A stretch of 64,000 nucleotides of DNA from Phytoamicus setariae (GTDB lineage: Bacteria; Pseudomonadota; Alphaproteobacteria; Rhizobiales; Rhizobiaceae): NCBI RefSeq assembly GCF_016722925.1, contig NZ_JAEQNC010000004.1, forward strand, positions 248,001 through 312,000, written 5' to 3'. A program made the position numbers and the translations under genes. Under the pieces are notes generated by a model. That model was not told the DNA's origin and ran no database searches. It saw nothing but the letters and a program-made list of their open reading frames with translations. Each line of letters begins with the position of its first letter. Within the stretch, counting starts at the first letter, position 1. This document shows, in pieces, positions 34,860-52,429 of this stretch.

Positions 34860-35264
34860 CTACTGCGAGTACTGTTTGAGATACGTGACCAGATTGGCGA
34901 TATCAGTGTCGTCCTTGAGCCCTGGAAACGCCATCTTGGTGCCCTTCACCTTCGCTCTGGGATTATGCAGATAGTCACGCAGCGTGGCTTCGTCCCAGAC
35001 AAGCCCGCCAGCCCCCGCCTCTTTCATGGCCGTCGAGTAGCTGAAATCCGGATGTGTTCCGGCCGTTCGACCGAACACATGGTTCAACGATGGCCCGACC
35101 TTGTTCTTGTCGGTATCGACGACATGACAGACGGCGCATTTCTTGAAGACGACCGCGCCCGCTTCGGCGTCGCCTTCCTGGGCGACCGCGCCATGTGGCA
35201 GGGCAATGGCAAGAGGCAGACTGATCAGAGCAATGCGATACCACATGGCAATCCTCATTCTCAT
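34860..35264 (-). CDS. Class I c-type cytochrome, probable electron donor to the oxidase
   Basis: A 134-residue exported cytochrome. Signal peptide about residues 1-28 (IALISLPLAIALPHGAVAQ), heme motif CAVCH at 43-47 and axial Met111 in GTKMAFPGLK. The overall pattern (GDAEAGAVVFKKCAVCH, VGPSLNHVFGR) is that of cytochrome c2/c550-type proteins of alphaproteobacteria. It is upstream of and on the same strand as the subunit II gene, so it probably serves this oxidase. Confidence 0.92.
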   Translation of the reverse strand: MRMRIAMWYRIALISLPLAIALPHGAVAQEGDAEAGAVVFKKCAVCHVVDTDKNKVGPSLNHVFGRTAGTHPDFSYSTAMKEAGAGGLVWDEATLRDYLHNPRAKVKGTKMAFPGLKDDTDIANLVTYLKQYSQ

Positions 35265-35396: not shown

Positions 35397-37016
35397 TCAA
35401 CCCGCACGGATCATCTCGGCAGCCTTTTCCGCGATCATGATGACGGGCGAATTGGTGTTGCCGGAAACGATGGTGGGCATGATCGAGGCATCGACCACCC
35501 GCAGCCCGGAAAGACCGTGAACGCGCAACTGTGCATCGACCACCGAGAGGTTGTCGCTGCCCATCTTGCAGGTACCGACCGGATGGAAAATCGTCGTGGC
35601 GATGTCGCCTGCCCTTTGGATGAGTTGCTCGTCGGACTGGTATTCCCTGCCCGGCAACATCTCCTGCGGCTTGAAACGGCTGACGGCCTTTTGGGTCATA
35701 AGCTGGCGCGCATGCCGGATCGAACGCGCCGCGATCATCCTGTCTCCCGGCGTGGAAAGATAGTGCGGCCGGATTTCGGGCGCGACCGAAATGTCCCTGG
35801 TCGTAGCATGCACCGTGCCCCGGCTCTCGGGTCGGAGATTGCAGACTGACACGGTAACGGCGGGATACTTGTGCAACGGCTCGCCGAGGCGATCCGTGCT
35901 CAGCGGCTGCACGTGATATTCCAGATCGGCGGTCGCCACCGATGGATCGCTTTTGGCGAAGATGCCGAGCTGGCTGGGCGCCATCGACAACGGGCCAGAG
36001 CGGCGCAACGCATATTCCAGGCCCATGCCCGCCCGGGTGATGAGGTTGTGATAGAGCTGGTTCAGGGTTTTGGCGCCTTCGATCTTGAAGACCGTGCGGA
36101 TCTGAAGATGGTCCTGCAGATTTTCGCCGACGCCAGGCAGATCGTGCAGGACGCCGATGCCGAGCGAGGACAGCAGCGCGCCATTGCCGACGCCGGAAAG
36201 CTCGAGAATTTTTGGCGAGTTGATCGCGCCTGCCGAGAGGATGACCTCTCCCCTCGCTTTGGCAATCGACGGCCGGCCGTTGCGCCGGAATCGAACGCCG
36301 CTCACCCGCTTGCCATCGAACTCCAGCCGTTCGGTCTCCGCTCCGGTCAACACACGGAGGTTGGCCCTGTCCATGGCCGGGCGCAGGAAGGCCTTGGTGG
36401 TGTTCCACCTGATGCCCCCCTTCTGATTGACCTCGAAATAGCCTGAGCCCTCGTTGTCGCCATCGTTGAAGTCGTCGGTCTTGGGGATGCCCATTTGCTC
36501 AGCCGCATCGCGGAAAGCATCAAGGATTGGCCATGACAGCCGTTGTTTTTCCACCCGCCACTCGCCGCCCGCACCGTGCATGTCGGATTTGCCGCGGTAG
36601 TTGTCTTCCGATTTGAGGAAATAGGGCAGCACGTCGTCCCAGCCCCAGCCGCCATTGCCCGCCTGCCGCCAGCCGTCGTAATCGGCGGCCTGGCCGCGCA
36701 TGTAGATCATGCCGTTGATCGACGAGCAGCCGCCCAGCACCTTGCCGCGCGGATAGTTGAGCGACCGGCCATTCAGCCCGGCCTCCGAAGCCGTCTTCAT
36801 CATCCAGTCGGTGCGTGGATTACCCATGCAGTAGAGATAACCGATCGGGATGTGGATCCAGTGGTAATTGTCCCTGCCTCCGGCTTCGAGCAGCAGCACC
36901 CGGTTCTTCGGATCGGCCGAAAGCCGGTTGGCAAGCACGCAGCCCGCCGAGCCCGCACCCACGACGATGTAATCGTAGGTGCCCTCGTCTGCTGCATTTT
37001 CATCGACGGTGTTCAC
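35397..37016 (-). CDS. GMC-family FAD oxidoreductase (choline/alcohol dehydrogenase-like)
   Basis: A 539-residue flavoprotein. The FAD-binding motif is VVGAGSAGCVLANRLS (about residues 18-33), with GMC signatures YPRGKVLGGCSSINGMIYMRG and GAINSPKILELSGVGNG. The catalytic His is in FHPVGTCKMG and the partner Asn in NTNSPV near the C-terminus. It overlaps the FGGY kinase gene by 4 bases (ATGA), so it belongs to the polyol operon as its last gene. It probably oxidises an alcohol or aldehyde of the pathway; BetA-type choline dehydrogenase is unlikely in this setting. Confidence 0.9.
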   Translation of the reverse strand: MNTVDENAADEGTYDYIVVGAGSAGCVLANRLSADPKNRVLLLEAGGRDNYHWIHIPIGYLYCMGNPRTDWMMKTASEAGLNGRSLNYPRGKVLGGCSSINGMIYMRGQAADYDGWRQAGNGGWGWDDVLPYFLKSEDNYRGKSDMHGAGGEWRVEKQRLSWPILDAFRDAAEQMGIPKTDDFNDGDNEGSGYFEVNQKGGIRWNTTKAFLRPAMDRANLRVLTGAETERLEFDGKRVSGVRFRRNGRPSIAKARGEVILSAGAINSPKILELSGVGNGALLSSLGIGVLHDLPGVGENLQDHLQIRTVFKIEGAKTLNQLYHNLITRAGMGLEYALRRSGPLSMAPSQLGIFAKSDPSVATADLEYHVQPLSTDRLGEPLHKYPAVTVSVCNLRPESRGTVHATTRDISVAPEIRPHYLSTPGDRMIAARSIRHARQLMTQKAVSRFKPQEMLPGREYQSDEQLIQRAGDIATTIFHPVGTCKMGSDNLSVVDAQLRVHGLSGLRVVDASIMPTIVSGNTNSPVIMIAEKAAEMIRAG

Positions 37017-38524
37017 GCTGCTGCTCCCAGGGCCGCCATGCGCTTCCAGATCGGCGTCATGGCATCGGATATGTCGCGATAGATGCGGTAGCGCTGCTCG
37101 TAGAGATCGGCAAGCGCGGGGTTGGGCGTATAATGGCGTTCGACCGTCACCATCGATGCAGCGCCCTCCGCGAAATCCCTGAACAGGCCGACACCGGTTC
37201 CGGCTGCGATCGCGGCACCCAGCGCACCCGTCTCTTTCGAACGGGCAATCGAAACAGGCACGCCGAGCACGTCGGTGAATATCTGCGGCCAGACCTTGCT
37301 GCGCGAGCCACCGCCCGAGAGAACGGCCTCGTCGAAACGTACGCCCGCCGCCCTGAGCTTCTCGATATGCCAGCGGTGACCGAACACCACTCCTTCCAGC
37401 ACCGCCCGCATCAGATGCGCCTTAGTGTGCCAGCCGGCGACGCCATGGAAACCCGCCCGTGCATTGCCGTCGGTCTGGGCACCATAGAGGAACGGGTGGT
37501 AGAACGGTGCCGCAAGCTGCGGCTCGACGGAGGCTGCAAGCTCGCAGCAGAGATCGAAGGGCGACACGCCTTCCTCGCAATCGGCAAAGAACTCGCGCAC
37601 CATCCATTCGAGATTGGCAGCCGACGTGGCGCTGTTTTCCATGGCCATGTAACGGGTGCGGTCAAAGCTTGACGACATGAAGATCGGTGCTTCGAGCTCT
37701 GGCCGATCCGTTATCACCTGGTTGATGCTCCAGGTGCCGGCAATGATCGAGGCGGCCCCTGTTCGGGTCACCCCGGAGCCGACTGCCGAGGCGATAACAT
37801 CGAACAGCCCGCCCACGACAGGCGTACCCGCAGCCAGGCCGGTCAGCGCGGCGGCGGTCTGTGTGACACGGCCGGCGATCTCGTCGCTTTCCACCAGCCG
37901 CGGCAGAAGATCCATGCAGTCACCGAGACCATAGGCCTCCATCAGCCGCTGGTCGTAGCGCCGTTCGACGACATTCAACAACCCGCAACCGATCATGTCG
38001 GAGACTTCGCTGATCCGCTCGCCGGTCAACCGGTTGGTGATGAAATCCTTGCACAGCAGCACCGTGCCGATCCGGGCGAATTGTTCCGGATCGTGGCGCT
38101 TCAACCAGGCAAGCAGCGTCGGCGTCTGCGACGGCCACGGCCGCTGCTGGCAAATCGGATAGGCGATATCGCCAACCCCTGCCGCCTCCAGCTCGTCGGC
38201 GAGCTGCGAGGCGCGCGTATCGAGAGACTGGATGGCGATCAGCGGTTCGCCCGCCTTGTCCAGGGCATAGAGACCGTTGCCGTGGCCGGCACAGCCGATC
38301 GCGGCGATTTCGTCGGCCGCGATACCGGATTTCTCGATGCAGGCGCGGATGACCGTCTGGGCATTTGCCCAGAGCTCGCCCAGCCCACGCTCGACATGAC
38401 CGGGCTTCGGCATCCGGCTATGGCCTTCCTCCGCGACATAGGCCAGTTCCCGGCCGCCAAGGTCGAAGATCACGGCTTTGATAACGGTGTTGCCGGCATC
38501 GAGGCCGAGCAGGTACTTACCCAT
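37013..38524 (-). CDS. FGGY-family carbohydrate kinase (LyxK/EryA-like)
   Basis: A 503-residue kinase starting MGKYLLGLDAGNTVIKAVIF; the start is set by GGGAGGGG just upstream, although the frame is open for 27 more codons. It has the phosphate-1 loop (GLDAGNTVIKA), GTPVVGGLFDVIASAVGSGV, and the C-terminal VLSGGGSRSKVWPQIFTDVLG of the FGGY family. It resembles E. coli LyxK (L-xylulose kinase) and fits the kinase slot of erythritol (EryA) operons. The substrate is probably a small polyol or ketose. It lies 31 bases after the aldolase gene and overlaps the GMC gene by 4 bases. Confidence 0.88.
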   Translation of the reverse strand: MGKYLLGLDAGNTVIKAVIFDLGGRELAYVAEEGHSRMPKPGHVERGLGELWANAQTVIRACIEKSGIAADEIAAIGCAGHGNGLYALDKAGEPLIAIQSLDTRASQLADELEAAGVGDIAYPICQQRPWPSQTPTLLAWLKRHDPEQFARIGTVLLCKDFITNRLTGERISEVSDMIGCGLLNVVERRYDQRLMEAYGLGDCMDLLPRLVESDEIAGRVTQTAAALTGLAAGTPVVGGLFDVIASAVGSGVTRTGAASIIAGTWSINQVITDRPELEAPIFMSSSFDRTRYMAMENSATSAANLEWMVREFFADCEEGVSPFDLCCELAASVEPQLAAPFYHPFLYGAQTDGNARAGFHGVAGWHTKAHLMRAVLEGVVFGHRWHIEKLRAAGVRFDEAVLSGGGSRSKVWPQIFTDVLGVPVSIARSKETGALGAAIAAGTGVGLFRDFAEGAASMVTVERHYTPNPALADLYEQRYRIYRDISDAMTPIWKRMAALGAAA

Positions 38525-38555
38525 GCGGAACCCCTCCCAAGGTTCGAATATACAA

Positions 38556-39398
38556 TTATCCCTGCTCATACACCGAGTAGGCATCCGCGCCGCTGGCGTC
38601 GTCATGGATGATGGCCATCAGCCCCCTCACGACAGCGCTCGGATTGGCGTGCTGGTAGATGTTGCGGCCATAGACCATGCCCTTCGCACCCTGCTTCATC
38701 AGCGCCGCCGACTTGTCGAACACGACACGCAGATCCTCCTTGCCGCCACCGCGCACTAGAACCGGGCATCGCGCCGCCTCGACCACCTTATGGAAATCTT
38801 CCGCATTGTCGGTCGGGTCGGCCTTGATGATATCCGCCCCCATTTCACGCGCAAGCCGGGTCAGCGTGACGATCTTTTCGCAATCGCCGTCGACCATGTA
38901 GCCACCCTTCTCGGTAACCGGCTGCATGACGAGCGGTTCAATCATCAGCGGCATGCCGTATTTGTCGCAATCGGCGCGAACGCGTGCAATGTTCTGGACG
39001 CACTGTTTGAACAGTTCCGGCTCGTCCGGCAGCATGAACAGATTGACGACGACGCAGGCTGCATCCATGGCCAGCGCGCCGATCAGCGGCTCGGCTTCGT
39101 TCTGCAGCACGGCCCACATGTGGCTATGGCGGATCTTGTTGTAGGGATTGCCCATGTCGATGCGCATCACCAGCGCCGGCTTGTCCTTGCCGGCGATGTC
39201 CTGCAGCAGGTCGGCCTGGCCGAAATTCATCTGGATCGCATCGGGGCCGGCATCCACCAGTGCCTTGACCACGCCTTCGACATTCTCAAGCCCATTGAGG
39301 AAGGTCGGTTCGTTGCAGACACCGTGGTCGATTGCGACATCGAGGCAGCGGCCACCGCCGAACAGCCGGTTCATCCGGACTTTGCTGTTGTTTCGCAT
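38556..39398 (-). CDS. Class I (DhnA/LsrF-type) aldolase
   Basis: A 280-residue TIM barrel of the DhnA-type class I aldolase family: CLDVAIDHGV near the N-terminus, the likely Schiff-base Lys in ADIIKADPTDN (about residues 200-210) and the phosphate-binding loop CPVLVRGGGK. Such enzymes cleave or transfer phosphorylated keto-sugars, usually giving dihydroxyacetone phosphate. The ATG with AGGAG six bases upstream is clear and lies 28 bases inside the end of the GlpD-like gene. LsrF of autoinducer-2 catabolism is in the same family, but the rest of an lsr system is absent. Confidence 0.85.
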   Translation of the reverse strand: MRNNSKVRMNRLFGGGRCLDVAIDHGVCNEPTFLNGLENVEGVVKALVDAGPDAIQMNFGQADLLQDIAGKDKPALVMRIDMGNPYNKIRHSHMWAVLQNEAEPLIGALAMDAACVVVNLFMLPDEPELFKQCVQNIARVRADCDKYGMPLMIEPLVMQPVTEKGGYMVDGDCEKIVTLTRLAREMGADIIKADPTDNAEDFHKVVEAARCPVLVRGGGKEDLRVVFDKSAALMKQGAKGMVYGRNIYQHANPSAVVRGLMAIIHDDASGADAYSVYEQG

Positions 39399-41113
39399 GG
39401 GATACTCCTGTCTGTGTTCCTTAAGTGTAGTGTCTGTTCGCTGACGCCGTGGCGCTCGGCAAGCAGGATGAGAAAACGTTTGTGCTCCGCGAGCCTGCGG
39501 CCCAGATCCCAGCCGCGTTCGGCGGCAAGGAGGTCGAGCGCCGCATCGGCCATCGCCAGCGAAAGCTGGCCGGAAATGGCCAGCGTCGTCCGACGAAGCA
39601 GAAGATCGTCGAGATGCTCAACACCTTCGCTGCGGATGAGGAAGAGCATTTCGCGGGTGGTGTAGTCGGCGTCCGGCAGCGCCGCGTCCGCCTGCCGGGC
39701 AATGAATTCCGCCACCTGTGTCGCAGCGGTTCCATAGCGCTCGAACAGTTGTTCGATCCGGGTTGAAGCCAGGCCGGTCGTCGCCGCGAGCGCTGCAATC
39801 CAGCTTTTCCGACTGGTAGGGAATTCGCGGCCGCCGCCGATCTGTCTGTCCTTGGTGTCGATACGGCGCGATTTCCCCAGACGTTTCAGCGTCATGTCGG
39901 CCGCGAGTTCGCCGAAGGACCGGAAGGTCGTCCATTTGCCCCCGATCATGCAAAGCACCGGCGGAGTTCCATCGGCTTCGACGAACGTACAAAAGTGATC
40001 GCGCGGAATGCGCCCGGTAAAGCTGTCGTTGCTGGCCGGCAACGGCCGGACGCCGGCAAACTGGAAGACGATATCCTCGGGCGCAATACGGATGTGCGGC
40101 AGCACGAAAGCGAGCGATTGCAGGATATAGTCCCGCTCGTCGGCTTCGCAGCGCACCGTGCCGGGATCGTCGACGCGAATATCGGTCGAGCCAACCAGAA
40201 CCTTGCCGAGATAGGGAAACAGGATGCAGATGCGCCCGTCCTCGTTTTCATAGTAAAGCATATGCCCGCCGAGCGCGGCCATCAGCTCGGCATTGTCGAT
40301 CATCAGGTGCGAGCCCTTGGTGCCGCCCATCAGCGGCCGCGCCGGTTTTTCGGCAAGGATCTGGCGATTGGTCAGATCGATCCAGCCTCCAGTTGCGTTG
40401 ATGACGATCTGCGGTTCGATTGGCGTGGTGCGACCGAGCACGGCATCATGGAGCATGAGCGACCCGTCAGCCTGCCGCGTGACCTCCGCATAGTTCAGCG
40501 CGCGGGCATGCAGTCCGGCGGTCAAGCCATCGTCAAGGAGTTCCATGCCCAACCGTTCCGGATGGCTGACCTGCGCATCGTAGTAGGTCGCCGAGGCGAT
40601 GAGATCGGGGTTTATCGCCGGCCACTTCGCCAGCGTCTTGCGCTTGCCGCGAAAGGTGTGCTTCGGCATCATGGCCCGGGTGCGGGTGAAGAAATCGTAG
40701 ATCGCCAGCCCGGTCTTGATGACCACCGCGCCGCGTCGGCTCGGTCGGCGCCCCAGCCCGAGAAATCGCACGGCGCCATTGGCTATGCCCGAAAAGGCAT
40801 CGAAGACCGGCACCGTCGTCGGTAGCGGCGAGACGTAGTGCGGGGCATTGGCGAGCAACCGGTCGCGCTCCTCAAGCGATTCCCGAACCAACTTGAATTC
40901 ACCGTTTTCAAGGTAGCGCAAGCCGCCATGCACCATGCGCGAAAGTGCGGCGCTGGCGCCGGAACAGTAATCGTTCCGCTCGACCAGCAGCACGTCGATG
41001 CCCTGCAGTGCCAGCTCGCGGAACACGCTGATGCCGTTGATGCCGCCGCCGATAACCAACACTTCTGCCTTCGGGCGTCTTGCGAGCCCGTTGAATATCT
41101 CTTCGCGATTCAT
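39371..41113 (-). CDS. GlpD/EryB-like FAD-dependent polyol-phosphate dehydrogenase
   Basis: A 580-residue protein starting MNREEIFNGLARR. FAD motif VLVIGGGINGISVFRELA (about residues 18-35), then SGASAALSRMVHGGLRYLE, the hallmark of GlpD-type glycerol-3-phosphate dehydrogenases, and a C-terminal GlpD cap domain. In erythritol operons the equivalent EryB oxidises erythritol 4-phosphate. Here it sits between an aldo-keto reductase and an aldolase gene, so the substrate is likely another polyol phosphate. The start was preferred to one 14 codons upstream, which would run into the reductase gene's end. Its 3' end overlaps the aldolase gene by 28 bases. Confidence 0.87.
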   Translation of the reverse strand: MNREEIFNGLARRPKAEVLVIGGGINGISVFRELALQGIDVLLVERNDYCSGASAALSRMVHGGLRYLENGEFKLVRESLEERDRLLANAPHYVSPLPTTVPVFDAFSGIANGAVRFLGLGRRPSRRGAVVIKTGLAIYDFFTRTRAMMPKHTFRGKRKTLAKWPAINPDLIASATYYDAQVSHPERLGMELLDDGLTAGLHARALNYAEVTRQADGSLMLHDAVLGRTTPIEPQIVINATGGWIDLTNRQILAEKPARPLMGGTKGSHLMIDNAELMAALGGHMLYYENEDGRICILFPYLGKVLVGSTDIRVDDPGTVRCEADERDYILQSLAFVLPHIRIAPEDIVFQFAGVRPLPASNDSFTGRIPRDHFCTFVEADGTPPVLCMIGGKWTTFRSFGELAADMTLKRLGKSRRIDTKDRQIGGGREFPTSRKSWIAALAATTGLASTRIEQLFERYGTAATQVAEFIARQADAALPDADYTTREMLFLIRSEGVEHLDDLLLRRTTLAISGQLSLAMADAALDLLAAERGWDLGRRLAEHKRFLILLAERHGVSEQTLHLRNTDRSIPCETTAKSG

Positions 41114-41130
41114 TGGTGCCTGTTTCCCCG

Positions 41131-42126
41131 TCACCCGTCGATGACGGATAGCCATGAGGCTATGGCCGCATCGATGGTGGAAATCTCTTCGCTCGAAAGC
41201 CTTATGGTTCCGGCGCGCGCATTATCGCGCGCCTGTGCCGGATTGCGCGCGCCGCACAGCGCAAACGTCACGCCGGGTTGGCCAAGCGTCCAGGCAATGA
41301 CCACCTGTGCGATTGTTGCGCCATGCGCTTCGACGACCGCCTGAATGGCCTGAGCAAACCCCGCAACCTTCCGGCGGTTTTCGACCGAAAAGCGCGGATT
41401 GTCCTTGCGCTGGTCGTCACCGCTGAAAACCCGCTCAGGCCCGATCATGCCCGATAGCAAGCCAAGCGCCAGCGACGAATAGCTGAGCGTTGCAATGCCA
41501 TTCGCACGCGTCAAGGGCAGCAGGTCCGCTTCGATTCCGCGATCGATCATGCTGAAGCGTTCCTGGATCGCGTTCAGCCCGCCAACATCGATATAGGCCT
41601 TGAGATCCTCGGTGCTGACATTGCTGGCGCCGATTGCCCGGATCTTGCCGGCCTTCTTCAGATCATGAAGCGCTTCCATCGTCTCGGCGACCGGCGTCGT
41701 CGGATCCTGCCAATGGGTAATGTAGAGATCGATGTAATCGGTCTTGAGCCGGCTCAGGCTTTCGTCGACCTCATGAAAGATCGCGTCGCGCCCGAGAAAG
41801 CGATGTACCGGCTTGCCGTCCTGATCGAAGAAGTGCCGGCCTTTCTGCGTGTGCCAGACCAGACCGCATTTGGTGGCGATGACGGCCTTGTCGCGGCGAC
41901 CAATGAGCGCCTTGCCGACGATTTCCTCGGCGCGGCCGAGGCCATAGGCCGGCGCCGTGTCGATCAAGGTTACGCCCTCGTCGAGCGAAGCCTGGATGGC
42001 GGCGATCGATTCCGCCTCGTCCGTGCCGCCCCACATCCAGCCGCCGATCGCCCAGGTGCCCAGGCCGACCGCCGATGCGTTCACTCCGGATGCGCCGATC
42101 GCGCGCGTAATCTGCGTTGCTGTCAT
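41131..42126 (-). CDS. Aldo-keto reductase
   Basis: A 331-residue (beta/alpha)8 NADPH-dependent reductase. The catalytic tetrad positions are seen in LIDTAPAYGLGRAEEIVGKAL (Asp, Tyr), VIATKCGLV (Lys) and IDLYITHWQDP (His). The start overlaps the SorC regulator stop by 4 bases and the end is 17 bases before the GlpD-like gene. It could reduce a short aldehyde released by the operon's aldolase or oxidise a sugar to a polyol; direction unknown. Confidence 0.9.
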   Translation of the reverse strand: MTATQITRAIGASGVNASAVGLGTWAIGGWMWGGTDEAESIAAIQASLDEGVTLIDTAPAYGLGRAEEIVGKALIGRRDKAVIATKCGLVWHTQKGRHFFDQDGKPVHRFLGRDAIFHEVDESLSRLKTDYIDLYITHWQDPTTPVAETMEALHDLKKAGKIRAIGASNVSTEDLKAYIDVGGLNAIQERFSMIDRGIEADLLPLTRANGIATLSYSSLALGLLSGMIGPERVFSGDDQRKDNPRFSVENRRKVAGFAQAIQAVVEAHGATIAQVVIAWTLGQPGVTFALCGARNPAQARDNARAGTIRLSSEEISTIDAAIASWLSVIDG

Positions 42127-43139
42127 GCGCCAATTCCTTCTGCATTCGCAATTTCAATAATTTTCGCGCCCGTGGCTTCGTCCGTCACCAGCGTATCGAG
42201 GTGGCCGCCGCGCATGACGCTGAGGATCGGCCCAGCCTTGTTCGGGCCGCTGGCAATACCGATCTTGGTCGGGATCTGCGCGAATTCCTCAAGCGTCAGC
42301 GACACCAGCGACCGGTTGAGCGCGTAGTCACAGACCTGTCCCTGCTTGTCGAGAAGATGCGCGAGCAACTCGCAATAGGCCCCCGACTGCTCGATCGCGG
42401 CACGATCCATCCCGGAAGACGGATGCAGGTCGTAGTAACTGGAATCGTCAGACAGGATCGAGCCGATGCCGACCACGGCGATCTTGGCCTCGCGTGCCTT
42501 GCGAAAGACATCGGCCACCGAACGCATTCCGATCAGCATCGCCTGCTGGCCGGCATCGTCGGCAAACAGCGGCGCGTGGATCTGGTAGGATTTGCCGCCG
42601 AGCCGTTCAGCCATCAGGGCAGAGACGTGATTGACGTCGGTGTAGTGCTTTCCCTGCACGCAGCCGGTCGCCGGGATCACCTCGACATTGAAGCCGTGCG
42701 GCCCATGCAGGCCGGCAACAACGGCGCTCACGCCCTTGCCGCCGGTGATGCAGATCGTGTCACCATCGGCGATCAGCTCCAGCAGCAGCCGTCCGGCGGC
42801 CTCGCCGACCGCCTGTAAGGCTGTCTGCGGATTGTCGGAAACCGTCGGCACCACCACGGCGCGGGAAATCCCGCCAAGCGCCAGCAACTGCTCCTCCATG
42901 TCGACGAGCGGCTCCATCGGCGACTTGATCTTGATCTCGACCAGGCCGAGCTGACGGCCGCGCTTGATCAGCCGGTTGACCGTCGCATGCGAGATGCCGA
43001 GCCGGTCGGCGATCTGCGCCTGGGTCAGTCCCTCGAGAAAATGCATGACCAGCGCCTGGTGCATCTGGCGGGCGATGACCGCCTCCTCGCGCGGAATGCT
43101 GACGACTTTGGATTTGGGTCTGGCGATGGCCATGGTCAT
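42123..43139 (-). CDS. SorC-family transcriptional regulator (EryD-like)
   Basis: A 338-residue regulator. The open frame runs far upstream through the permease gene, but the start is fixed at MTMAIARPKSK by a 4-base ATGA overlap with the permease stop. N-terminal helix-turn-helix LTQAQIADRLGISHATVNRLI (about residues 36-56), then a SorC sugar-binding domain with GGKGVSAVVAGL and ATGCVQG. EryD of erythritol operons belongs to this family. It is encoded within the operon it presumably represses, so it would respond to the pathway's sugar phosphate. Confidence 0.9.
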   Translation of the reverse strand: MTMAIARPKSKVVSIPREEAVIARQMHQALVMHFLEGLTQAQIADRLGISHATVNRLIKRGRQLGLVEIKIKSPMEPLVDMEEQLLALGGISRAVVVPTVSDNPQTALQAVGEAAGRLLLELIADGDTICITGGKGVSAVVAGLHGPHGFNVEVIPATGCVQGKHYTDVNHVSALMAERLGGKSYQIHAPLFADDAGQQAMLIGMRSVADVFRKAREAKIAVVGIGSILSDDSSYYDLHPSSGMDRAAIEQSGAYCELLAHLLDKQGQVCDYALNRSLVSLTLEEFAQIPTKIGIASGPNKAGPILSVMRGGHLDTLVTDEATGAKIIEIANAEGIGA

Positions 43140-44125
43140 GCCTTGCGCTTGTGGAGATAGTGATCGACGGAGACTGCGGCGAGCAATATGCAACCTTTGA
43201 TCATGTCCTGCCAATAGACGGATACGTCGAGCAGGATAAGCGATGACGACACGACGGACAGCAGCGCGATGCCGAGGATCGCGCCGAAAATAGTGCCCGA
43301 TCCGCCATTGAGCGACGCCCCGCCGATGACGGCCGCGGCAATGATGTTGAGCTCCATGCCGACGCCGAAGGTGGGCGTGGCCGAGCCGAAGCGCGACATG
43401 TAGATCACGCCTGCCACGCCGGCGAGCGTCGAGCACATGACGGTGACCCAGAACTTCACATGGTTGGTCTTGATGCCGGAATAGAGCGCGGCCTTTTCGT
43501 TGCTGCCGGTGTAGAACACCTTGCGGAACGCGGTGGCCCGACGCAGCAGGAAGTCGAAGATCACGACGACGGCGAAGAAGATCAGGATCACATAGGGAAT
43601 GCCATAGATCGAGCCCTGCCCGACCGCCTTGAACGACGGCGGCAGCGTAAACAGCGAAATCGGCGTGCCCTTGGTCACGGCCAGGCAAAGCCCGCGAACG
43701 ATGACCATGGCCGCCAACGAGGTGATGAAGTGATTGAGACCGACCACGGTGACGAAGAAGCCCATGATCGCCCCGATCACCGCGCTCATCAGGATACCGA
43801 GCAGCGACGACGTCCACGGATCCAGCCCCAGCATGAACATCGAGCCGGCAAACACCATCGCGAAGCACACGACCGATCCGACCGCCAGATCGATGCCGCC
43901 GACGATCAGCAGCACCGTCATGCCGACCACCACGATGCCTTCGACGGAGAAGGACATCAGCATCGCTCGGAAATTGCCGAGCGTCAGGAAATGCGGCGAG
44001 GCAAACGTCATCACCACGCAAAGCGCCAGGATGATCGCAACCAACCCCGCCTCGCGCATCGAGCCCACCCGTTTCCACGTCGCAACGCGCCGCTCGGATT
44101 GTGCCGTCATCGTATCGACCGCCAT
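43136..44125 (-). CDS. CUT2 (RbsC-like) sugar ABC permease
   Basis: A 329-residue permease starting MAVDTMTAQSERR; a GGGAGGAG site precedes this ATG, while the upstream in-frame extension overlaps the ATPase gene. Eight or more hydrophobic helices. Conserved CUT2 elements: GMTVLLIVGGIDLAVGS and IGGASLNGGSGTIFGAILG. A single permease is present, so the channel is a homodimer. It overlaps the SorC gene by 4 bases. Confidence 0.93.
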   Translation of the reverse strand: MAVDTMTAQSERRVATWKRVGSMREAGLVAIILALCVVMTFASPHFLTLGNFRAMLMSFSVEGIVVVGMTVLLIVGGIDLAVGSVVCFAMVFAGSMFMLGLDPWTSSLLGILMSAVIGAIMGFFVTVVGLNHFITSLAAMVIVRGLCLAVTKGTPISLFTLPPSFKAVGQGSIYGIPYVILIFFAVVVIFDFLLRRATAFRKVFYTGSNEKAALYSGIKTNHVKFWVTVMCSTLAGVAGVIYMSRFGSATPTFGVGMELNIIAAAVIGGASLNGGSGTIFGAILGIALLSVVSSSLILLDVSVYWQDMIKGCILLAAVSVDHYLHKRKA

Positions 44126-44153
44126 GTCTTCTCCTCCCGTATTCCTAACTGTC

Positions 44154-45686
<1,533 letters not shown>

Positions 45687-45745
45687 CGCCCACTCCTTCG
45701 CGTCTTCAAGGGGCGCATTTGCGCGCCCCTCGTACTTGGCTGCTA

Positions 45746-46774
45746 TTATTCCTCGATGCCCTTGGTGCCGCGACGCTTGAGGTACTTGTCCCAATAGAAG
45801 TCGTCGGCATTTTCCGCCGTGACAATCGACAGGCCGTTATCGACCACCGGAATGCTCATCGCGTTGAAGCCCGAGCGCTTGGCGTCGTTCATTGGATCGA
45901 TCAGTTCCGGATGCTTGGCAAGCCACAGCAGCATGAAGCCCATGTAACCCTGCATGCCCTGGTTCGGATTGATCGAGCCGAACACTTCGCCGGCCTTGAT
46001 CATGTCGAGGATGTTGGCGTTGACGTCGGCGCACATGACCAGAACCTTACCGCCGTTTTCCTTGCTGGCCTGAGCCGCGCCGATGGCCGAGTTGGCTTCC
46101 GGCATGAACACGGCGTTCAGGTTGGGATTGGCCTGAATGAGGCTCGACAGGGCCTGATAGGCCTTGGTCGGGTCCTGGTTGGAGGCGGCACGGCCGACCA
46201 GCTTCATGTCAGGATACTTTTCCTGCATCCGGGCAACGAAAGCGGCGATGCGCTTGTCGTGATTGTCCTGGCCCGGATTTTCGAGCACCGCATACTCGCC
46301 CTTGCCGCCCAGCTTGGTGGCGATCGCATCAGCGGCGTAAGTGCCTTCGCGGGTGTTGTCCGAAGTGATGAAGGAGATGCGCTTGGAGAGCGGCGCGTCA
46401 GCCGCGAAAGTCACGACCGCCGTGCCCTGATCGATAGCACGATTGATCGGCTCGATGAACGGATCGGAATTCATCGGATGGACGAGGATGCCGGCCGGGT
46501 TCTGGGCAAGCGCCTGATCGAACGAAGCGATCTGCTTGTTGACGTCATATTCCGGCGTGCCGGTATAGGCGGTTTCGCAGCCCATTTGCTGGCCGGCCTG
46601 CTTGAACATTTCATAGACCGGGAACCAGTATTCGACGCCCGAGACCATGACGTTCATGACGTATTTCTCGCCGGGCTTGCACTTGAACGGGCTGTCGGCG
46701 GCGAGAGCCGCACCCGACATGAATGTCGCCGATGCCAGAACGGCCAAAGCGGTTGTGCTGAAAAATTTGCGCAA
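45746..46774 (-). CDS. CUT2-type periplasmic sugar-binding protein
   Basis: A 342-residue binding protein of the ribose-binding (peripla_BP_4) family. The proposed start is TTG at 46774, right after GAGGAGG, giving a clean signal peptide ([18 protein letters not shown] then SGAALAAD). An ATG at 46843 in frame would add 23 unlikely residues. Typical segments: [40 protein letters not shown] and [20 protein letters not shown]. It is the first gene of the nine-gene operon and defines the imported substrate, probably a small polyol or sugar. Confidence 0.88.
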
Positions 46775-46909: not shown

Positions 46910-46924
46910 TATAATTCATGCCGA

Positions 46925-46936
46925 GAAATATATTTC
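46925..46936. promoter_or_regulatory. Perfect AT-rich palindrome upstream of the promoter (candidate SorC operator)
   Basis: GAAATATATTTC is its own reverse complement and lies 15 bases upstream of the candidate -35 box. A regulator of the operon, such as the SorC protein encoded in it, could bind here. Assignment by position only. Confidence 0.35.
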
Positions 46937-47241
46937 ACAAACTAGCAGCATTCAATGACGTCGGGAAAGCTGCGGCACCAACTCGGGTAAGGGTATAGTT
47001 GTCAGTGGAATGATGCTGCCCGGATGGATCTCCCCAATCCTAGTCGCCTGGCGAGGTTCGGCAAGGAAGCGAATGGCATTTTCGACTTGCGTGGGACCAG
47101 CGCCCCATCACTCGCCAACGCATCCACGCAGCTTGACTGAAAGTCTTTAGCTGAAAAGGCTGTAGGTTCACCCGAAACTGCGGAGCACTTCGTAAATTGC
47201 GTTGCGAAAGTCGTCAACGAACTGGAAATCTCGGGCTAGGA

Positions 47242-47316
47242 TGGTGGGCGTGACAGGGATCGAACCTGTGACCCCTTCGGTGTGAACGAAGTGCTCTCCC
47301 GCTGAGCTACACGCCC
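47242..47316 (-). tRNA. tRNA-Val (anticodon CAC)
   Basis: Read on the minus strand: acceptor stem GGGCGTG (47310-47316) pairs with CACGCCC, the D arm is TAGCTCAGCGGGAGAGCA, the anticodon stem CTTCG/CGAAG encloses loop TTCACAC with anticodon CAC, and the T arm is ACAGGTTCGATCCCTGT. The 3' CCA is encoded (47242-47244). Anticodon CAC reads the Val codon GUG. No integrase or att-like duplication is seen next to it. Confidence 0.97.
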
Positions 47317-47469: not shown

Positions 47470-48498
47470 TCAGCTTTCGAAGCCGGTCAGCACGCCCACG
47501 GCGTTGACGCCGATATCGGCCACCGCATAGCCGCCTTCCATGACGAACAGCGTCGGCAGGCCGAGCTTGGCGATACGCGCGCCGATCTTGGGGAAATCCT
47601 CGGTTTTCAGCTTGAACTTGGAGATCGGATCTTTTTCGAACGTGTCGACGCCGAGCGAAACGACCACCACGTCGGGCGCATAGTCCTCGAGTTTCTTGCA
47701 GCCATCATCGAGTGCAGCACTCCAGGTTTCCCAGCTCGTGCCCCAGCGCATCGGATAGTTGATGTTGAACCCCTCACCGGCGCCCGCCCCCTTCTCGTCG
47801 GCATGACCGAGGAAGTAGGGATATTCCTGCATCGGATCGGCATGCAGGTTGATCACCTGCACGTCTGCGCGCTGGTAGAAGATCTCCTGGGTACCGTTGC
47901 CATGGTGATAGTCGACATCGAGGATCGCGACACGCTTGGCGCCTTGGTCGAGGAACCATTGGGCGGCGACGGCGGCATTGTTGATGTAGCAATAGCCCGC
48001 CATGAAGGCGGCACCCGCATGATGGCCCGGCGGTCGGCAGAGCGCAAAGGCGGTCCGCTCGCCGCCATGCACGAGGCCGGCAGCCGTCAAGGCAACATCA
48101 TGCGACGACTTGATTGCATCCCAGCTGCCTTCGACGATGCCGCAGCCACCATCGAAGGAATAGTAGCCGAGCTGGCCGTCGATGAACTCCGGCACCACGT
48201 CGCCGCGCAGTCCGCGCGTTGGCCAGGTGAACGGGATGGCGGTTCCATCGCGCCCTTCCGCCTTCCAGCGTGCGTAAATGGTCGGCAGGAAATCGAGATA
48301 GGCCTTGCTGTGCACCTTGGCGGCGGTGGACAAGTCATGCTCGACCGGATCGATCACCGGGCCAAGCTTCACCTCTGTCAGGCGGTTCATGATGAACTCG
48401 GCCCGGGACGGCATTTCGAAAGCCGGTACGATGGCACCGGCGACAAGCTCCATGTTGCCGGAATGACCGAGGTGGCGGGGAGAAAATACAGTTTTCAT
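47470..48498 (-). CDS. Acetylpolyamine amidohydrolase (histone deacetylase family)
   Basis: A 342-residue zinc hydrolase starting MKTVFSPRHLGHSG; an in-frame TTG 5 codons upstream is less likely. Histone-deacetylase-fold motifs: CRPPGHHAGAAFMAGYCYINN (catalytic His pair), LDVDYHHGNGTQEIF (zinc ligands Asp and His), GVDTFEKDP (third zinc ligand) and MEGGY. In bacteria such enzymes deacetylate acetylputrescine and related polyamines. It follows the polyamine-type importer genes on the same strand, 67 bases after the binding-protein gene, so it probably processes imported acetylated polyamines. Confidence 0.9.
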   Translation of the reverse strand: MKTVFSPRHLGHSGNMELVAGAIVPAFEMPSRAEFIMNRLTEVKLGPVIDPVEHDLSTAAKVHSKAYLDFLPTIYARWKAEGRDGTAIPFTWPTRGLRGDVVPEFIDGQLGYYSFDGGCGIVEGSWDAIKSSHDVALTAAGLVHGGERTAFALCRPPGHHAGAAFMAGYCYINNAAVAAQWFLDQGAKRVAILDVDYHHGNGTQEIFYQRADVQVINLHADPMQEYPYFLGHADEKGAGAGEGFNINYPMRWGTSWETWSAALDDGCKKLEDYAPDVVVVSLGVDTFEKDPISKFKLKTEDFPKIGARIAKLGLPTLFVMEGGYAVADIGVNAVGVLTGFES

Positions 48499-48565
48499 GA
48501 TGTACTGCCGCAATTGAAAAGGAAAAGGCCGCCCCGCATGGTGTGCGGAGCGGCCCGGTCACAGA

Positions 48566-49600
48566 TTACTTCTGCAGTTCGGTCCAGATCTTGGTGTAGA
48601 TTTCCTGGGTTGCCGGTTCGCAAAGCCGCATGAACTCGGCCTTGGACTTCATGTCCTCAGGCACGTTGAGTTCCGGCGCGCCCTTCATCTCGGCAGGCAT
48701 GAATGGCTCGGAACCCTCGATGCCGTTGGCGTAGCGGGCAAATGCCGAAATCATCGCCGCATTTTCCGGATCCATGATGAAGTTCTGGAAAAGCTTGGCG
48801 TTCTCGACATTCTTGGCGTCCTTCAGCACCACCGCATTGTCGGACCAGTAGGTGAAGCCTTCCTTGGCATAGCCGTAGTGGATCGACGGCTTCTGCAGAC
48901 GCTGGCGCAGCACCGAGCCGTTCCAGTCGGTGGAGGCGGCGATGTCACCGGCGAGCATCTTGTCGATGACCGCATATTCCATCGAGATCCAGTTGGGCTT
49001 GGCGTTGACAAGCGCATCGCGTGCCTTCTTCAGCACGGCCTTGTCGTCCGTGCACCAGTCACCACCGACATACTTGATGGCTGCATAAATCACGTCGTTC
49101 ATTTCCGGTACGACGTTGATCTTGCCCTTGAGTTCGTCGGGCGTATCGAACACCAAGCCCCAGGTGTTGATGTCGCCCTTGTAGACGTCGGAGTTCACTG
49201 TCACGCCGACCGTGCCCCACTGCCACGGAACCGAGTACTTGCGGCCCGGATCGAAATCGGGATTGGCCCATTCCTTGGCAATGTTCTTGCCATTTTCCAT
49301 CTGGGCAGGATTGGTTTCGAGCAACAGCCCCTCAGAGATCCAGATCGGCAGATGGCTCTGCGACGGCATCACGACGTCGAAGCCGGAGCCGCCTTGGCGC
49401 ACCTTGGCAAGCGCCGTCTCGTTGGAATCGTAGTCCGTCACCGTGACCTTCACGTCATAGGCTTTTTCGAACTTCTTGATCATGTCGGGGCTGGTGTAAT
49501 TGCCCCAGTTATAGATGTGCAGTTCGCCTGCCGCATGGGCAAAGCTGACGGATGCAAGTAGCATCGCACCCGCCGTCAGGATTGTCCTACTGTTGTTCAT
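48566..49600 (-). CDS. Polyamine-type (PotD/PotF-like) periplasmic binding protein
   Basis: A 344-residue exported protein with signal peptide MNNSRTILTAGAMLLASVSF and cleavage after AHA. The mature N-terminus ELHIYNWGNYTSPDMIKKFE is characteristic of the PotD/PotF group, and later SVPWQWGTVGVTVN fits the same family. It lies 19 bases after the second permease gene and before the acetylpolyamine amidohydrolase gene. The ligand is presumably a polyamine or acetylated polyamine. Confidence 0.92.
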   Translation of the reverse strand: MNNSRTILTAGAMLLASVSFAHAAGELHIYNWGNYTSPDMIKKFEKAYDVKVTVTDYDSNETALAKVRQGGSGFDVVMPSQSHLPIWISEGLLLETNPAQMENGKNIAKEWANPDFDPGRKYSVPWQWGTVGVTVNSDVYKGDINTWGLVFDTPDELKGKINVVPEMNDVIYAAIKYVGGDWCTDDKAVLKKARDALVNAKPNWISMEYAVIDKMLAGDIAASTDWNGSVLRQRLQKPSIHYGYAKEGFTYWSDNAVVLKDAKNVENAKLFQNFIMDPENAAMISAFARYANGIEGSEPFMPAEMKGAPELNVPEDMKSKAEFMRLCEPATQEIYTKIWTELQK

Positions 49601-49619
49601 TATGGTTCCCTTTCCGCTT

Positions 49620-50420
49620 TTATTGAGCGCGTTTCTGATTGATGAAGAAGAAGATCGTCACCGCCGCGATGGACAGCAGCAGGAAGACGGCCGAGATCGC
49701 ATTGATTTCCGGCGTCGTCGAACGGCGGATTTGCCCGAGCATGTAGGTCGGCAGCGTATCCTGGCCACCGGACTTGACGAATTCGGTGATCACCACGTCG
49801 TCGAGCGAGATGACGAATGCCAGCATGAAGCCGGCAATGACACCGGGCCATAGCAGCGGCAGCGTCACATAGCGGAATGCCTTGATCGGCGTTGCGTAAA
49901 GATCCGCAGCCGCCTTTTCGAGCGTCAGGTCCATGCTTTCCAGCCGCGCCCGGATTGGCAGGTAGGCGAAGGGAATGCAGAATGCCGTATGCGCCGCAAT
50001 CAGATAGCCAAGGCCGGTATAGCCGGTCCAGATCTTCACCCGCGAGAAGAAGATCAGCAACGCCACCGCGGTGACGATTTCCGGCACCATCAAAGGCAGG
50101 TTGAGGAACGCATACTTTGCCGTCATCCCCCGATAGGCCGCGGTTCTCGTCGTGGCAAGCGCCGCCAGCGTCGCGGCGAATGTGGCTATGACGGCAGCGG
50201 TTACGGCGATCTTCAGCGAATTGATCGAGGCATCAATCACCTCGCTGTTTTGCGCCGCCTTGCCGAACCAGCGAAACGAAAACCCCTGCAATGTCGATAG
50301 GCTCTCGCCGGCATTGAAGGCATAGACGACCAGCACCGCGATCGGCAGATAAAGTGCGAAGAACGAGATCATCGCGATGGTGGTGAAGCCGCGCTGGCGA
50401 CGAACGCTGAAGCTAGCCAT
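49620..50420 (-). CDS. Polyamine-type ABC permease (PotC/PotI-like)
   Basis: A 266-residue permease with six hydrophobic helices and the EAA-loop LEKAAADLYATPIKAFRYVTLP. The start MASFSVRRQRG is chosen because CGGAGG lies just upstream; earlier in-frame codons would overlap the first permease more deeply. The overlap with that gene is 8 bases. Confidence 0.92.
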   Translation of the reverse strand: MASFSVRRQRGFTTIAMISFFALYLPIAVLVVYAFNAGESLSTLQGFSFRWFGKAAQNSEVIDASINSLKIAVTAAVIATFAATLAALATTRTAAYRGMTAKYAFLNLPLMVPEIVTAVALLIFFSRVKIWTGYTGLGYLIAAHTAFCIPFAYLPIRARLESMDLTLEKAAADLYATPIKAFRYVTLPLLWPGVIAGFMLAFVISLDDVVITEFVKSGGQDTLPTYMLGQIRRSTTPEINAISAVFLLLSIAAVTIFFFINQKRAQ

Positions 50421-51333
50421 GGGCGCGTCCTCCGGAACTGGCATTGCGCACATAGGCGAGCAGCGCCACCATCACGATCAGCATCAGCGCGATCGACAGA
50501 GACGATCCCAGCGGCCAGTTTCTGCCCTGCCCAAACTGAAGTTCGATCAGGTTACCGATCATCATGTTTTTGCCGCCGCCAAGCACCGACGGCGTCACAT
50601 AGGCGCCGAGCGAGGGGATGAAGACGAGGATCGAGCCCGCAATCATGCCGGGCTTGACGAGCGGAATGATGACATTGGTCAACACCTTGAATGGCGTGGC
50701 ATAGAGGTCATAGCCCGCTTCCACCAGCCGGAAGTCAATCTTCTCCATGCTGGCGTAAAGCGGCAGCACCATCAGCGGCAGATAGACGTAGATCATCCCG
50801 ATCAGGATGGCGCCATCGGTAAACAGCATCTGGATCGGCGTATCGATCAGGCCAAACTTCATGCCCAGCGTGTTGATGACGCCCTCGTTGCGGATCACCT
50901 GCATGACAGCGAAAGTGCGGATGAGAAGATTGGTCCAGAAGGGGATAGTGACCAGAAACAGCCAGAGTTCGCGGCTGCCGGCCGGGCGCGTCGCAATGAA
51001 ATAGGCGGTGGGGAAACCGAAAACGAGGGTCGCGACCGTCGTGATCAGCGACAACTTCACCGAGCGGATGAAGATCGTCATATTCGCATCGGCGAAGGTC
51101 AGCGTATCGTCGAAGATATCGCGTTCCATCAACACCCCGAACCAGCCATCGGTCGAGAATTTCCACACCACGTCGCCATAAGGCCCCGGTGTCAGAAAGG
51201 AATAGACAAGTACGATCAGCAGCGGCCCGACGGCCGCCAGCAGAATGATCAAAAGGGCAGGAAGCGACAGGAGCCAGCGATTGCGGATGTCGCGCCTCTG
51301 TTCATTTTCGATGAGTGCGCTTTCACCTGCCAT
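50413..51333 (-). CDS. Polyamine-type ABC permease (PotB/PotH-like)
   Basis: A 306-residue permease: N-terminal cytoplasmic segment, six helices, and the EAA-type loop LVEAGYDLYATPFKVLTNVIIP. PGPYGDVVWKFSTDGW in the first periplasmic stretch fits the PotB/PotH group. It starts 1 base after the ATPase stop and overlaps the second permease gene by 8 bases. Confidence 0.93.
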   Translation of the reverse strand: MAGESALIENEQRRDIRNRWLLSLPALLIILLAAVGPLLIVLVYSFLTPGPYGDVVWKFSTDGWFGVLMERDIFDDTLTFADANMTIFIRSVKLSLITTVATLVFGFPTAYFIATRPAGSRELWLFLVTIPFWTNLLIRTFAVMQVIRNEGVINTLGMKFGLIDTPIQMLFTDGAILIGMIYVYLPLMVLPLYASMEKIDFRLVEAGYDLYATPFKVLTNVIIPLVKPGMIAGSILVFIPSLGAYVTPSVLGGGKNMMIGNLIELQFGQGRNWPLGSSLSIALMLIVMVALLAYVRNASSGGRAHG

Positions 51334-51334
51334 G

Positions 51335-52429
<1,095 letters not shown>

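What the first reader, a model, noticed from the sequence alone, without database searches (positions are those of the whole stretch)
35397..46774. Possible new polyol pathway: kinase, GlpD-like oxidation, then aldolase
Seen: one nine-gene operon with 4-base overlaps encodes an RbsABC-type importer, SorC regulator, aldo-keto reductase, GlpD/EryB-like dehydrogenase, DhnA-type aldolase, FGGY kinase and GMC oxidoreductase. Known: erythritol operons share the transporter, SorC, kinase and GlpD-like parts but use isomerases/epimerases, not an aldolase. Inferred: a polyol is phosphorylated at C1, oxidised at C2 to a ketose 1-phosphate, then split into dihydroxyacetone phosphate and a short aldehyde handled by the AKR or GMC enzyme.
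Basis: partly seen in the sequence, partly recalled or inferred. Interest (0 to 1): 0.72.

Follow-up and report, generated by a model that had tools for sequence, protein, structure and literature searches.

The report
Unassigned polyol operon with aldolase step
A soil bacterium carries a widely conserved nine-gene operon that most likely imports an unidentified sugar alcohol, phosphorylates it, oxidises it and cuts it in two with an aldolase; I found no paper naming its substrate, although the same operon sits in well-studied nitrogen-fixing bacteria.

Summary
In detail: nine same-strand genes at 35397-46774 (CUT2 importer, SorC, AKR, GlpD-like dehydrogenase, DhnA-type aldolase, FGGY kinase, GMC). 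The same operon is on Rhizobium and Sinorhizobium replicons. The kinase-GlpD-aldolase trio accompanies the binding protein in 7 of 7 loci of a class sample and 12 of 15 of a second family's sample; two of the other three carry a non-orthologous trio, one lacks the aldolase. In Sagittula the aldolase is replaced by an LsrF ortholog plus a RhaD-type protein; in G733 kinase and GlpD are replaced. AKR and GMC are optional. The aldolase keeps the Schiff-base lysine, general-base Asp and phosphate site but not LsrF's Asp251. It is neither an Ery nor an Lsr operon. New here: a palindrome TGAAATATATTTCA before the binding-protein gene in 122 of 125 distinct loci, missing from the two that lack SorC. 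The substrate is unknown, nothing is shown biochemically, and Sagittula's LsrF is unexplained. Verdict: new variant of a known kind of pathway.

The parts
46924..46937 (-). Predicted SorC operator, TGAAATATATTTCT here (family consensus TGAAATATATTTCA)
   Evidence: 13-base core exact; 0.01 matches expected per window at up to 1 mismatch; at most 3 mismatches in 122 of 125 distinct loci, 112 of them 144-190 bases before the SBP start; symmetric variant TGAATTATAATTCA; absent in L245/L246, which lack SorC. Binding not shown.
45746..46774 (-). CUT2 periplasmic binding protein (SBP), TTG start
   Evidence: PF13407; closest solved chains 6sw4, 7x0g, 3g1w; 70-76% identical in Sagittula, Photobacterium and G733.
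44154..45686 (-). CUT2 ATP-binding subunit, RbsA type
   Evidence: PF00005 twice; start.
43136..44125 (-). CUT2 permease, RbsC type (start 44125 or 44164)
   Evidence: PF02653; starts.
42123..43139 (-). SorC-family regulator with sugar-binding domain
   Evidence: PF04198; start.
41131..42126 (-). Aldo-keto reductase, GSP69/IolS/YdjG kin; accessory
   Evidence: PF00248, YdjG model 274 bits of 550, PDB 1pz1; in 4 of 7 and 14 of 15 SBP-picked loci.
39371..41155 (-). GlpD-like FAD dehydrogenase (start 41155 or 41113); predicted polyol-phosphate oxidation
   Evidence: PF01266+PF16901; below the GlpD equivalog cut-offs; GlpD segments aligned.
38556..39398 (-). DhnA-type class I aldolase; predicted ketose-1-phosphate cleavage
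   Evidence: PF01791; D24, H25, E154, K192, G217-G219, R245; closest solved MJ0400 and LsrF.
37013..38524 (-). FGGY kinase (start 38524; longer frame to 38605)
   Evidence: PF00370/PF02782; core clade of 10 rows, support 99/97; 35% to LyxK, 30% to LsrK, 27% to XylB of E. coli.
35397..37016 (-). GMC oxidoreductase, choline-dehydrogenase-like; accessory
   Evidence: PF00732/PF05199; 562 bits of 605 for choline dehydrogenase; in 2 of 7 and 10 of 15 SBP-picked loci.

Best explanation
A SorC-regulated catabolic operon. The CUT2 importer brings in an unidentified polyol-like compound (inferred). The FGGY kinase phosphorylates a terminal hydroxyl (inferred from family). The GlpD-like flavoenzyme oxidises the neighbouring carbon, presumably passing electrons to quinone, giving a ketose 1-phosphate (inferred). 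The DhnA-type class I aldolase, through Lys192, splits this into DHAP and an aldehyde (inferred; the catalytic residues are shown). AKR reduces, or GMC and others oxidise, the aldehyde or a precursor; they are optional (inferred). SorC binds TGAAATATATTTCA upstream of the first gene and is released by the compound or an intermediate (site shown by conservation; binding and effector inferred).
For: Tight linkage: FGGY, GlpD and ALD in 28 of 28 order loci (ALD-picked), 7 of 7 class loci and 12 of 15 loci of the family of G697 (both SBP-picked); where the trio is present it is on one strand within 4.3 kb. Replacement with the set of steps kept: G733 keeps SBP (76%), AKR (59%) and ALD (71%) but has FGGY 32% and GlpD 41%; L245/L246 keep SBP (64-67%), AKR (60-65%) and in one case GMC, with another FGGY (28-29% to the window's), another GlpD-like gene (33-34% to the nearest reference) and another DhnA protein (28%); Sagittula keeps SBP (74%), GlpD (50%) and FGGY (46%) but has in the aldolase slot LsrF plus a class II aldolase whose best models are RhaD-type fusions (372 bits to PRK08324, cut-off 639; 238 to TIGR02632, cut-off 568). 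Aldolase residues: Schiff-base Lys, general-base Asp and phosphate site in 8 of 8 core aldolases examined, roles from PMC2728841 (passages read). The nearest kinase+GlpD pair outside this operon type (FGGY 35-39%, GlpD 43-46%) sits behind erythritol-type transporters next to EryA-type kinases in 8 of 8 loci seen, which argues for polyol phosphates as substrates. A related aldolase clade (about 50%) sits with a PfkB kinase and, in some loci, a D-lyxose-isomerase-like gene (identified by reading): again a sugar kinase plus DhnA.
Against: No substrate, product or phenotype is known. Among E. coli kinases compared, the window kinase is closest to LyxK, a ketose kinase. Sagittula carries a genuine LsrF (72% to E. 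coli) beside the class II aldolase, which plain aldol cleavage does not explain. One locus (L243) has the operon without an aldolase, though its genome holds a second, complete copy (L251). The RhaD-type protein is far below the model cut-offs, so its activity is a guess. The replacement argument rests on four loci.
Confidence: 0.6

Rival explanations
1. Deoxy-ketose/thiolase route: the kinase makes a 1-deoxyketose 5-phosphate (e.g. DXP), GlpD oxidises C4 beside the phosphate to 3-hydroxy-2,4-pentanedione 5-phosphate, the known LsrF substrate, and the DhnA protein releases acetyl-CoA and DHAP.
For: The chemistry fits exactly (own reasoning). Sagittula's version of the operon has an LsrF ortholog, 499 bits against a cut-off of 297 and 72% to E. 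coli LsrF. The kinase has LsrK, XylB and LyxK among its relatives.
Against: The window aldolase scores 102 bits against LsrF's cut-off 297, lacks Asp251 (Val242) and has Glu154 where LsrF has Val, as do all 8 core members examined. Sagittula is the only locus seen with a genuine LsrF in this place.
Confidence: 0.08
2. Tetritol operon: a threitol or erythritol isomer is turned into erythrulose phosphate, then cleaved or passed to Ery isomerases.
For: The nearest kinase and GlpD kin outside this operon type lie behind ery-type transporters; in L220 such a pair is followed by a DhnA protein.
Against: The window SBP is only 27% identical to the ery-locus SBP; aldol cleavage of a tetrulose 1-phosphate would give formaldehyde; no EryC in this genome (control 110); G209 carries both an ery locus and this operon, so erythritol itself is unlikely.
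Confidence: 0.15
3. The imported compound is an aldose or ketose; AKR or GMC converts it first, and the kinase acts on a ketose as LyxK does.
For: LyxK is the closest of the E. coli kinases compared and GlpK lies far off in the tree; SBP kin include arabinose-binding 6sw4.
Against: AKR and GMC are absent from several loci that keep the rest; a ketose 1-phosphate would not need GlpD-type oxidation before aldol cleavage.
Confidence: 0.12
4. AI-2 (Lsr-like) uptake and processing.
For: Same families throughout: CUT2, SorC/LsrR, LsrK-like FGGY, LsrF-like DhnA.
Against: LsrK 232 of 528, LsrF 102 of 297, LsrB 60 of 384, LsrR 129 of 486 bits; one permease gene where the E. coli lsr operon has LsrC and LsrD; GlpD has no role there.
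Confidence: 0.03

Closest known systems
Erythritol catabolic loci of rhizobia (eryABCD, eryEFG; PMC3599248, section 10 and one passage read)
   Same: CUT2 importer (in the eryEFG kind), FGGY kinase, GlpD-like polyol-phosphate dehydrogenase, SorC/DeoR-type regulator.
   Different: EryA-type 28-29% and EryB-type 27-28% to the window proteins; EryC absent from this genome; the window operon has a DhnA aldolase, AKR and GMC.
Second kinase-GlpD pair behind eryEFG-type transporters (R. ruizarguesonis TA1 pTA1_1, L180)
   Same: Closest kin of FGGY (39%) and GlpD (43%) outside this operon type, adjacent to each other.
   Different: No DhnA-type gene in the fetched stretch of any of the 8 ery loci seen; DeoR regulator in several; products may enter the Ery route. 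The paper searches made listed no description of this pair.
L-fucose and L-rhamnose pathways (FucK/FucA, RhaB/RhaD; recalled, gene sets seen)
   Same: FGGY kinase then ketose-1-phosphate aldolase giving DHAP and an aldehyde that is reduced or oxidised.
   Different: There an isomerase makes the ketose before phosphorylation and the aldolase is class II; here GlpD-type oxidation would follow phosphorylation and the aldolase is class I.
Lsr (AI-2) system
   Same: CUT2 importer, SorC regulator, FGGY kinase, DhnA-fold enzyme.
   Different: All scores far below the Lsr cut-offs; LsrF's Asp251 missing; GlpD added.

Membership tests
Erythritol (Ery) pathway | EryA-type kinase | tested here: not met
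   29% at best in the whole genome, that hit being this kinase; separate clade. The EryA query was assigned by gene order in L180.
Erythritol (Ery) pathway | EryC isomerase | tested here: not met
   No match in the own genome; the same query found one in 4 of 5 other genomes.
Erythritol (Ery) pathway | TpiB/RpiB isomerases | not tested
   None in the operon; the rest of the genome was not searched for them.
Lsr (AI-2) system | LsrK, LsrF, LsrB, LsrR equivalogs | tested here: not met
   All below the NCBIfam cut-offs.
Lsr (AI-2) system | LsrF active-site Asp251 | tested here: not met
   Val242 in the window protein and in 8 of 8 core members examined, the window included.
Class I DhnA/DeoC-LacD aldolases (PF01791) | Schiff-base Lys, general-base Asp, phosphate site | tested here: met
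   K192, D24, H25, G217-G218, R245 (roles from PMC2728841).
Class I DhnA/DeoC-LacD aldolases (PF01791) | Tyr proton donor of T. tenax FBPA and ADH synthase | tested here: not met
   Leu156 there; Glu154 two residues before, at the T. tenax Trp144 column. LsrF lacks the Tyr too.
Fuc/Rha-type ketose-1-phosphate pathways | Activity: kinase product cleaved to DHAP and aldehyde | not testable with these tools
   Needs enzyme assays.
CUT2 sugar/polyol importers | PF13407 SBP, duplicated ATPase, PF02653 permease | tested here: met
SorC-family regulation of the operon | Conserved palindrome upstream that follows presence of SorC | tested here: met
   122 of 125 distinct loci with at most 3 mismatches; absent in L245/L246 and in G733, where no SorC gene was found in the stretch.

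The most novel reading that the evidence does not exclude
The operon family eats a methyl-branched or 1-deoxy C5 compound left over from isoprenoid metabolism (1-deoxyxylulose or a 2-C-methyl tetritol). Kinase and GlpD-type oxidation yield either the LsrF substrate 3-hydroxy-2,4-pentanedione 5-phosphate (acetyl-CoA plus DHAP, thiolase form, as Sagittula's LsrF suggests) or a branched ketose 1-phosphate (hydroxyacetone plus DHAP, aldolase form). The SBP would allow it: it has Ala-Ala where its closest solved relatives carry Asp-Ser or Asp-Thr.
Probability: 0.07. Interest if true: 0.85.

Novelty: new variant of a known kind. Interest (0 to 1): 0.62.

Why it matters
The operon sits on plasmids of model legume symbionts (R. 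johnstonii 3841 pRL12; S. meliloti Rm41 pSymB), and 145 plasmid records hold at least 80% of its DNA in one place. Sugar-alcohol use is known to affect competition for symbiosis (PMC10433430, introduction passage). Kinase, GlpD-type oxidation and class I aldolase would be a third way into polyols beside dehydrogenase-first and Ery-type routes, sending part of the carbon straight to DHAP. The swap events predict the step each enzyme does, and the operator gives a handle on the inducer.

Tried and rejected
AI-2/Lsr identity: rejected on scores and residues. Normal erythritol route: rejected for this genome as far as EryA and EryC go. Judged by listed titles and abstract openings (one search listed 10 of 60 papers, 15 of 41), none describes this operon; five searches gave no paper. 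Passages searched in PMC3454389, PMC8751395 and PMC10433430 gave no substrate, and PMC4961836 held none of the six terms; passages of PMC11005471 and PMC3245297 did not bear on it. I could not map the operon to old pRL12 or SMb gene numbers. Substrate by SBP pocket: only a hint, because which RbsB residues contact ribose is recalled. Structure prediction was not possible. L243's 'EryB' neighbour proved, on reading, to be a glycerol GlpD beside a GlpK. In the kinase tree several long branches (G738, G733, YgcE, RhaB) are unsafe; only the core clade and the ery-side clade are used. One search counted 126 of 130 loci with the palindrome; a recheck dropped one contig-edge artefact (L176) and four duplicate loci, giving 122 of 125.
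Full report
What is there. The window is part of a 5.6 Mb, 37-contig genome. The nine genes stand on the minus strand from 46774 to 35397 in the order SBP, RbsA, RbsC, SorC, AKR, GlpD, ALD, FGGY, GMC. Three of eight junctions are 4-base overlaps. A tRNA-Val gene lies upstream at 47242-47316; cytochrome c and cytochrome oxidase-like genes lie downstream (read from translations). None of the five enzymes passes an NCBIfam cut-off: the kinase has 262 of 380 bits for XylB and 232 of 528 for LsrK; GlpD 252 of 360; ALD 137 of 241 for the ADH-synthase subfamily and 102 of 297 for LsrF; GMC 562 of 605 for choline dehydrogenase; AKR 274 of 550 for YdjG.

How widespread. The aldolase was searched in 397 genomes of the order: 81 match at E up to 0.001. 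All 28 non-self hits of 69% identity or more were fetched with up to 20 kb. FGGY, GlpD and ALD stand together on one strand in 28 of 28; AKR in 27, GMC in 25, the orthologous importer in 23. The five others have a different CUT2 importer with two permeases in front of the same enzymes. These 80 are 77-89% identical aldolases, and at least four repeat loci of the order sample, so they are not independent. The operon is on R. johnstonii 3841 pRL12 (RL_RS36690-36730), R. leguminosarum WSM1325 pR132501 and S. meliloti Rm41 pSymB; in R. leguminosarum 248 pRle248e the GMC frame is not annotated but matches in two pieces.

Test that does not start from the aldolase. I searched with the binding protein. 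In 385 genomes of the class, 7 non-self genomes matched at E up to 1e-80 and 7 of 7 carry the trio; AKR is in 4, GMC in 2. In 374 genomes of the family of G697 (Paracoccus-like by 72-86% identical ery-locus proteins), 15 places in 14 genomes matched the Sagittula binding protein at E up to 1e-90; 12 of 15 carry the orthologous trio. Of the other three, L245 and L246 carry upstream a GlpD-like gene (33-34% to the nearest reference used), a DhnA protein (28%) and an FGGY kinase (33-34% to the nearest reference, 28-29% to the window's), then SBP (64-67%), importer, AKR and, in L245, GMC; L246 also has a GlcD-like FAD oxidase. L243 has everything but the aldolase and lies beside a glycerol kinase/dehydrogenase pair; its genome has a second operon with the aldolase (L251).

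Replacements. In G733, a genome of another class, SBP (76%), importer, AKR (59%) and ALD (71%) are kept, while kinase (32%) and GlpD (41% to ours, up to 48% to the ery-side GlpD) come from other lineages. In Sagittula sp. MA-2 the SBP (74%), SorC (45%), GlpD (50%) and FGGY (46%) are kept but the aldolase gene is replaced by an LsrF ortholog and a 397-residue class II aldolase whose best models are RhaD-type aldolase/dehydrogenase fusions. Photobacterium sp. GJ3, a gammaproteobacterium, has SBP, importer, SorC, AKR, GlpD, ALD and FGGY. So the same binding protein travels with an FGGY kinase, a GlpD-like enzyme and an aldolase-family protein, whichever lineage supplies them, in the SBP-picked loci and in these three, with L243 the one exception. 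This is the strongest evidence for one pathway with these three steps.

Which step the aldolase does. With the residue roles given in the LsrF structure paper (PMC2728841, passages read), the window enzyme keeps the Schiff-base lysine (K192), the general-base aspartate (D24) and the phosphate site (H25, glycines 217-218, R245). LsrF's proposed Asp251 is Val242, and Glu154 stands where LsrF has Val; both hold for 8 of 8 core members examined, and Glu154 also for the 7 other non-LsrF members aligned. In T. tenax FBPA the Glu154 column is Trp144 in 1ojx and Glu in 1w8s; that 1w8s is an engineered W144E/Y146F mutant imitating classical class I aldolases is recalled. The residues fit aldol cleavage better than the LsrF thiolase reaction. 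GlpD's 'AGxRPL' and 'GGKxTxxR' segments, which in E. coli GlpD contact the substrate (recalled), are kept.

The polyol inference. The window kinase falls in a clade of 10 core rows (support 99/97) apart from EryA-type kinases, XylB, LsrK and GlpK; the ery-side kinases form another clade (99/99), and E. coli LyxK is unresolved near both. BLAST identities are 35% LyxK, 30% LsrK, 27% XylB and 28-29% EryA-type. Outside this operon type the closest kin of FGGY and GlpD are a kinase-GlpD pair behind ery-type transporters. I saw 8 such loci (L180-L182, L186, L217-L219, L222): an EryA-type kinase is in 8 of 8 (57-73% to the one of L180, besides L180 itself), an EryB-type dehydrogenase in 7, a DhnA-type gene in none. 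EryA and EryB were assigned by me in L180 from gene order and PMC3599248. A ninth locus (L220), with no EryA- or EryB-type gene in the stretch beyond the pair itself, has a DhnA gene directly after the pair. I read this as the pair making a ketose phosphate that goes to Ery isomerases where they exist and to an aldolase where they do not. This supports polyol phosphates as GlpD substrates, but it is indirect.

Operator. An AT-rich palindrome, TGAAATATATTTCA, lies before the SBP start. The window copy (46924-46937, one mismatch in 14 bases) has a 13-base exact core; 0.01 matches were expected in the window. Among loci with an SBP of at least 50% identity, 126 of 130 have it with at most 3 mismatches. 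After removing four duplicates and one contig-edge artefact it is 122 of 125, 55 of them exact; 112 of the 122 lie 144-190 bases before the start, 98 of these at 155-170, and ten lie elsewhere. Mononucleotide shuffles reach 3 mismatches in 22 of 2600 and never fewer. One group carries TGAATTATAATTCA, changed symmetrically in both arms. The three failures are L244 (4 mismatches) and L245 and L246, the two loci of the set without SorC. G733, where no SorC gene was seen in the stretch, lacks it too (6 mismatches at best). I take it as the SorC operator; binding is not shown.

Not erythritol, not AI-2. No EryC match in this genome, while the same query finds one in 4 of 5 other genomes; the fifth (G187) also has the operon. 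The best EryA-type match is this kinase itself at 29%; the only other GlpD found is next to glycerol-type genes as read from translations. G209 has both an ery locus and this operon. Lsr scores are far below cut-off and the only LsrF-like protein found in the genome is this aldolase.

What remains open. The substrate, the phosphorylated carbon, the aldehyde, and the roles of AKR, GMC and the zinc-type dehydrogenase seen in some loci. The binding protein's solved relatives 6sw4 (arabinose-binding), 7x0g and 3g1w carry Asp-Ser, and 2qvc Asp-Thr, where all 12 aligned members of this family have Ala-Ala; that this is a sugar-contacting position is recalled from RbsB. Sagittula's LsrF is unexplained under the main reading and keeps the thiolase variant alive.

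Noticed in passing
L180 9992-13307 and L181, L182, L186, L217-L219, L222: A second FGGY kinase and GlpD-like pair sits behind erythritol-type transporters next to EryA-type genes; in L180 it is 29-31% identical to the EryA- and EryB-type proteins compared. The searches made listed no description of it.
   Followed up: partly
L220 7992-12162: In G666 such a pair is followed directly by a DhnA-family protein, with no other EryA- or EryB-type gene in the fetched stretch.
   Followed up: partly
L068-L074: Aldolases about 50% identical to the window's sit with a Gfo/Idh/MocA dehydrogenase, a PfkB kinase and, in some, a D-lyxose-isomerase-like gene or Zn-ADH: another apparent sugar-kinase plus DhnA cluster (read from translations, partly cut from view).
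   Followed up: partly
L077 7759-10309, L078 9620-12177: DhnA-family protein beside DhaK/DhaL-like dihydroxyacetone kinase genes (read from translations).
   Followed up: no
L184 12229-14309: Sagittula sp. MA-2: genuine LsrF plus a lone RhaD-type class II aldolase in a GlpD/FGGY operon.
   Followed up: partly
L259 12925-14334: GlcD-like FAD-linked oxidase (168 bits, cut-off 568) inserted in the variant operon, perhaps oxidising a 2-hydroxy acid from the aldehyde product; L258 3919-5418 looks alike on reading.
   Followed up: partly
L171 10861-12388, L177 10866-12372: FGGY matches in two pieces in two Mesorhizobium loci, possibly disrupted kinase genes or sequence errors.
   Followed up: no
window 34860-35264: A cytochrome c-like gene starts about 130 bases after GMC on the same strand, ahead of cytochrome oxidase-like genes; it could accept electrons from GMC or be coincidence (read from the translation).
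   Followed up: no
window 47470-52429: Upstream of the tRNA-Val: acetylpolyamine amidohydrolase-like gene and a polyamine-type ABC transporter (read from translations).
   Followed up: no
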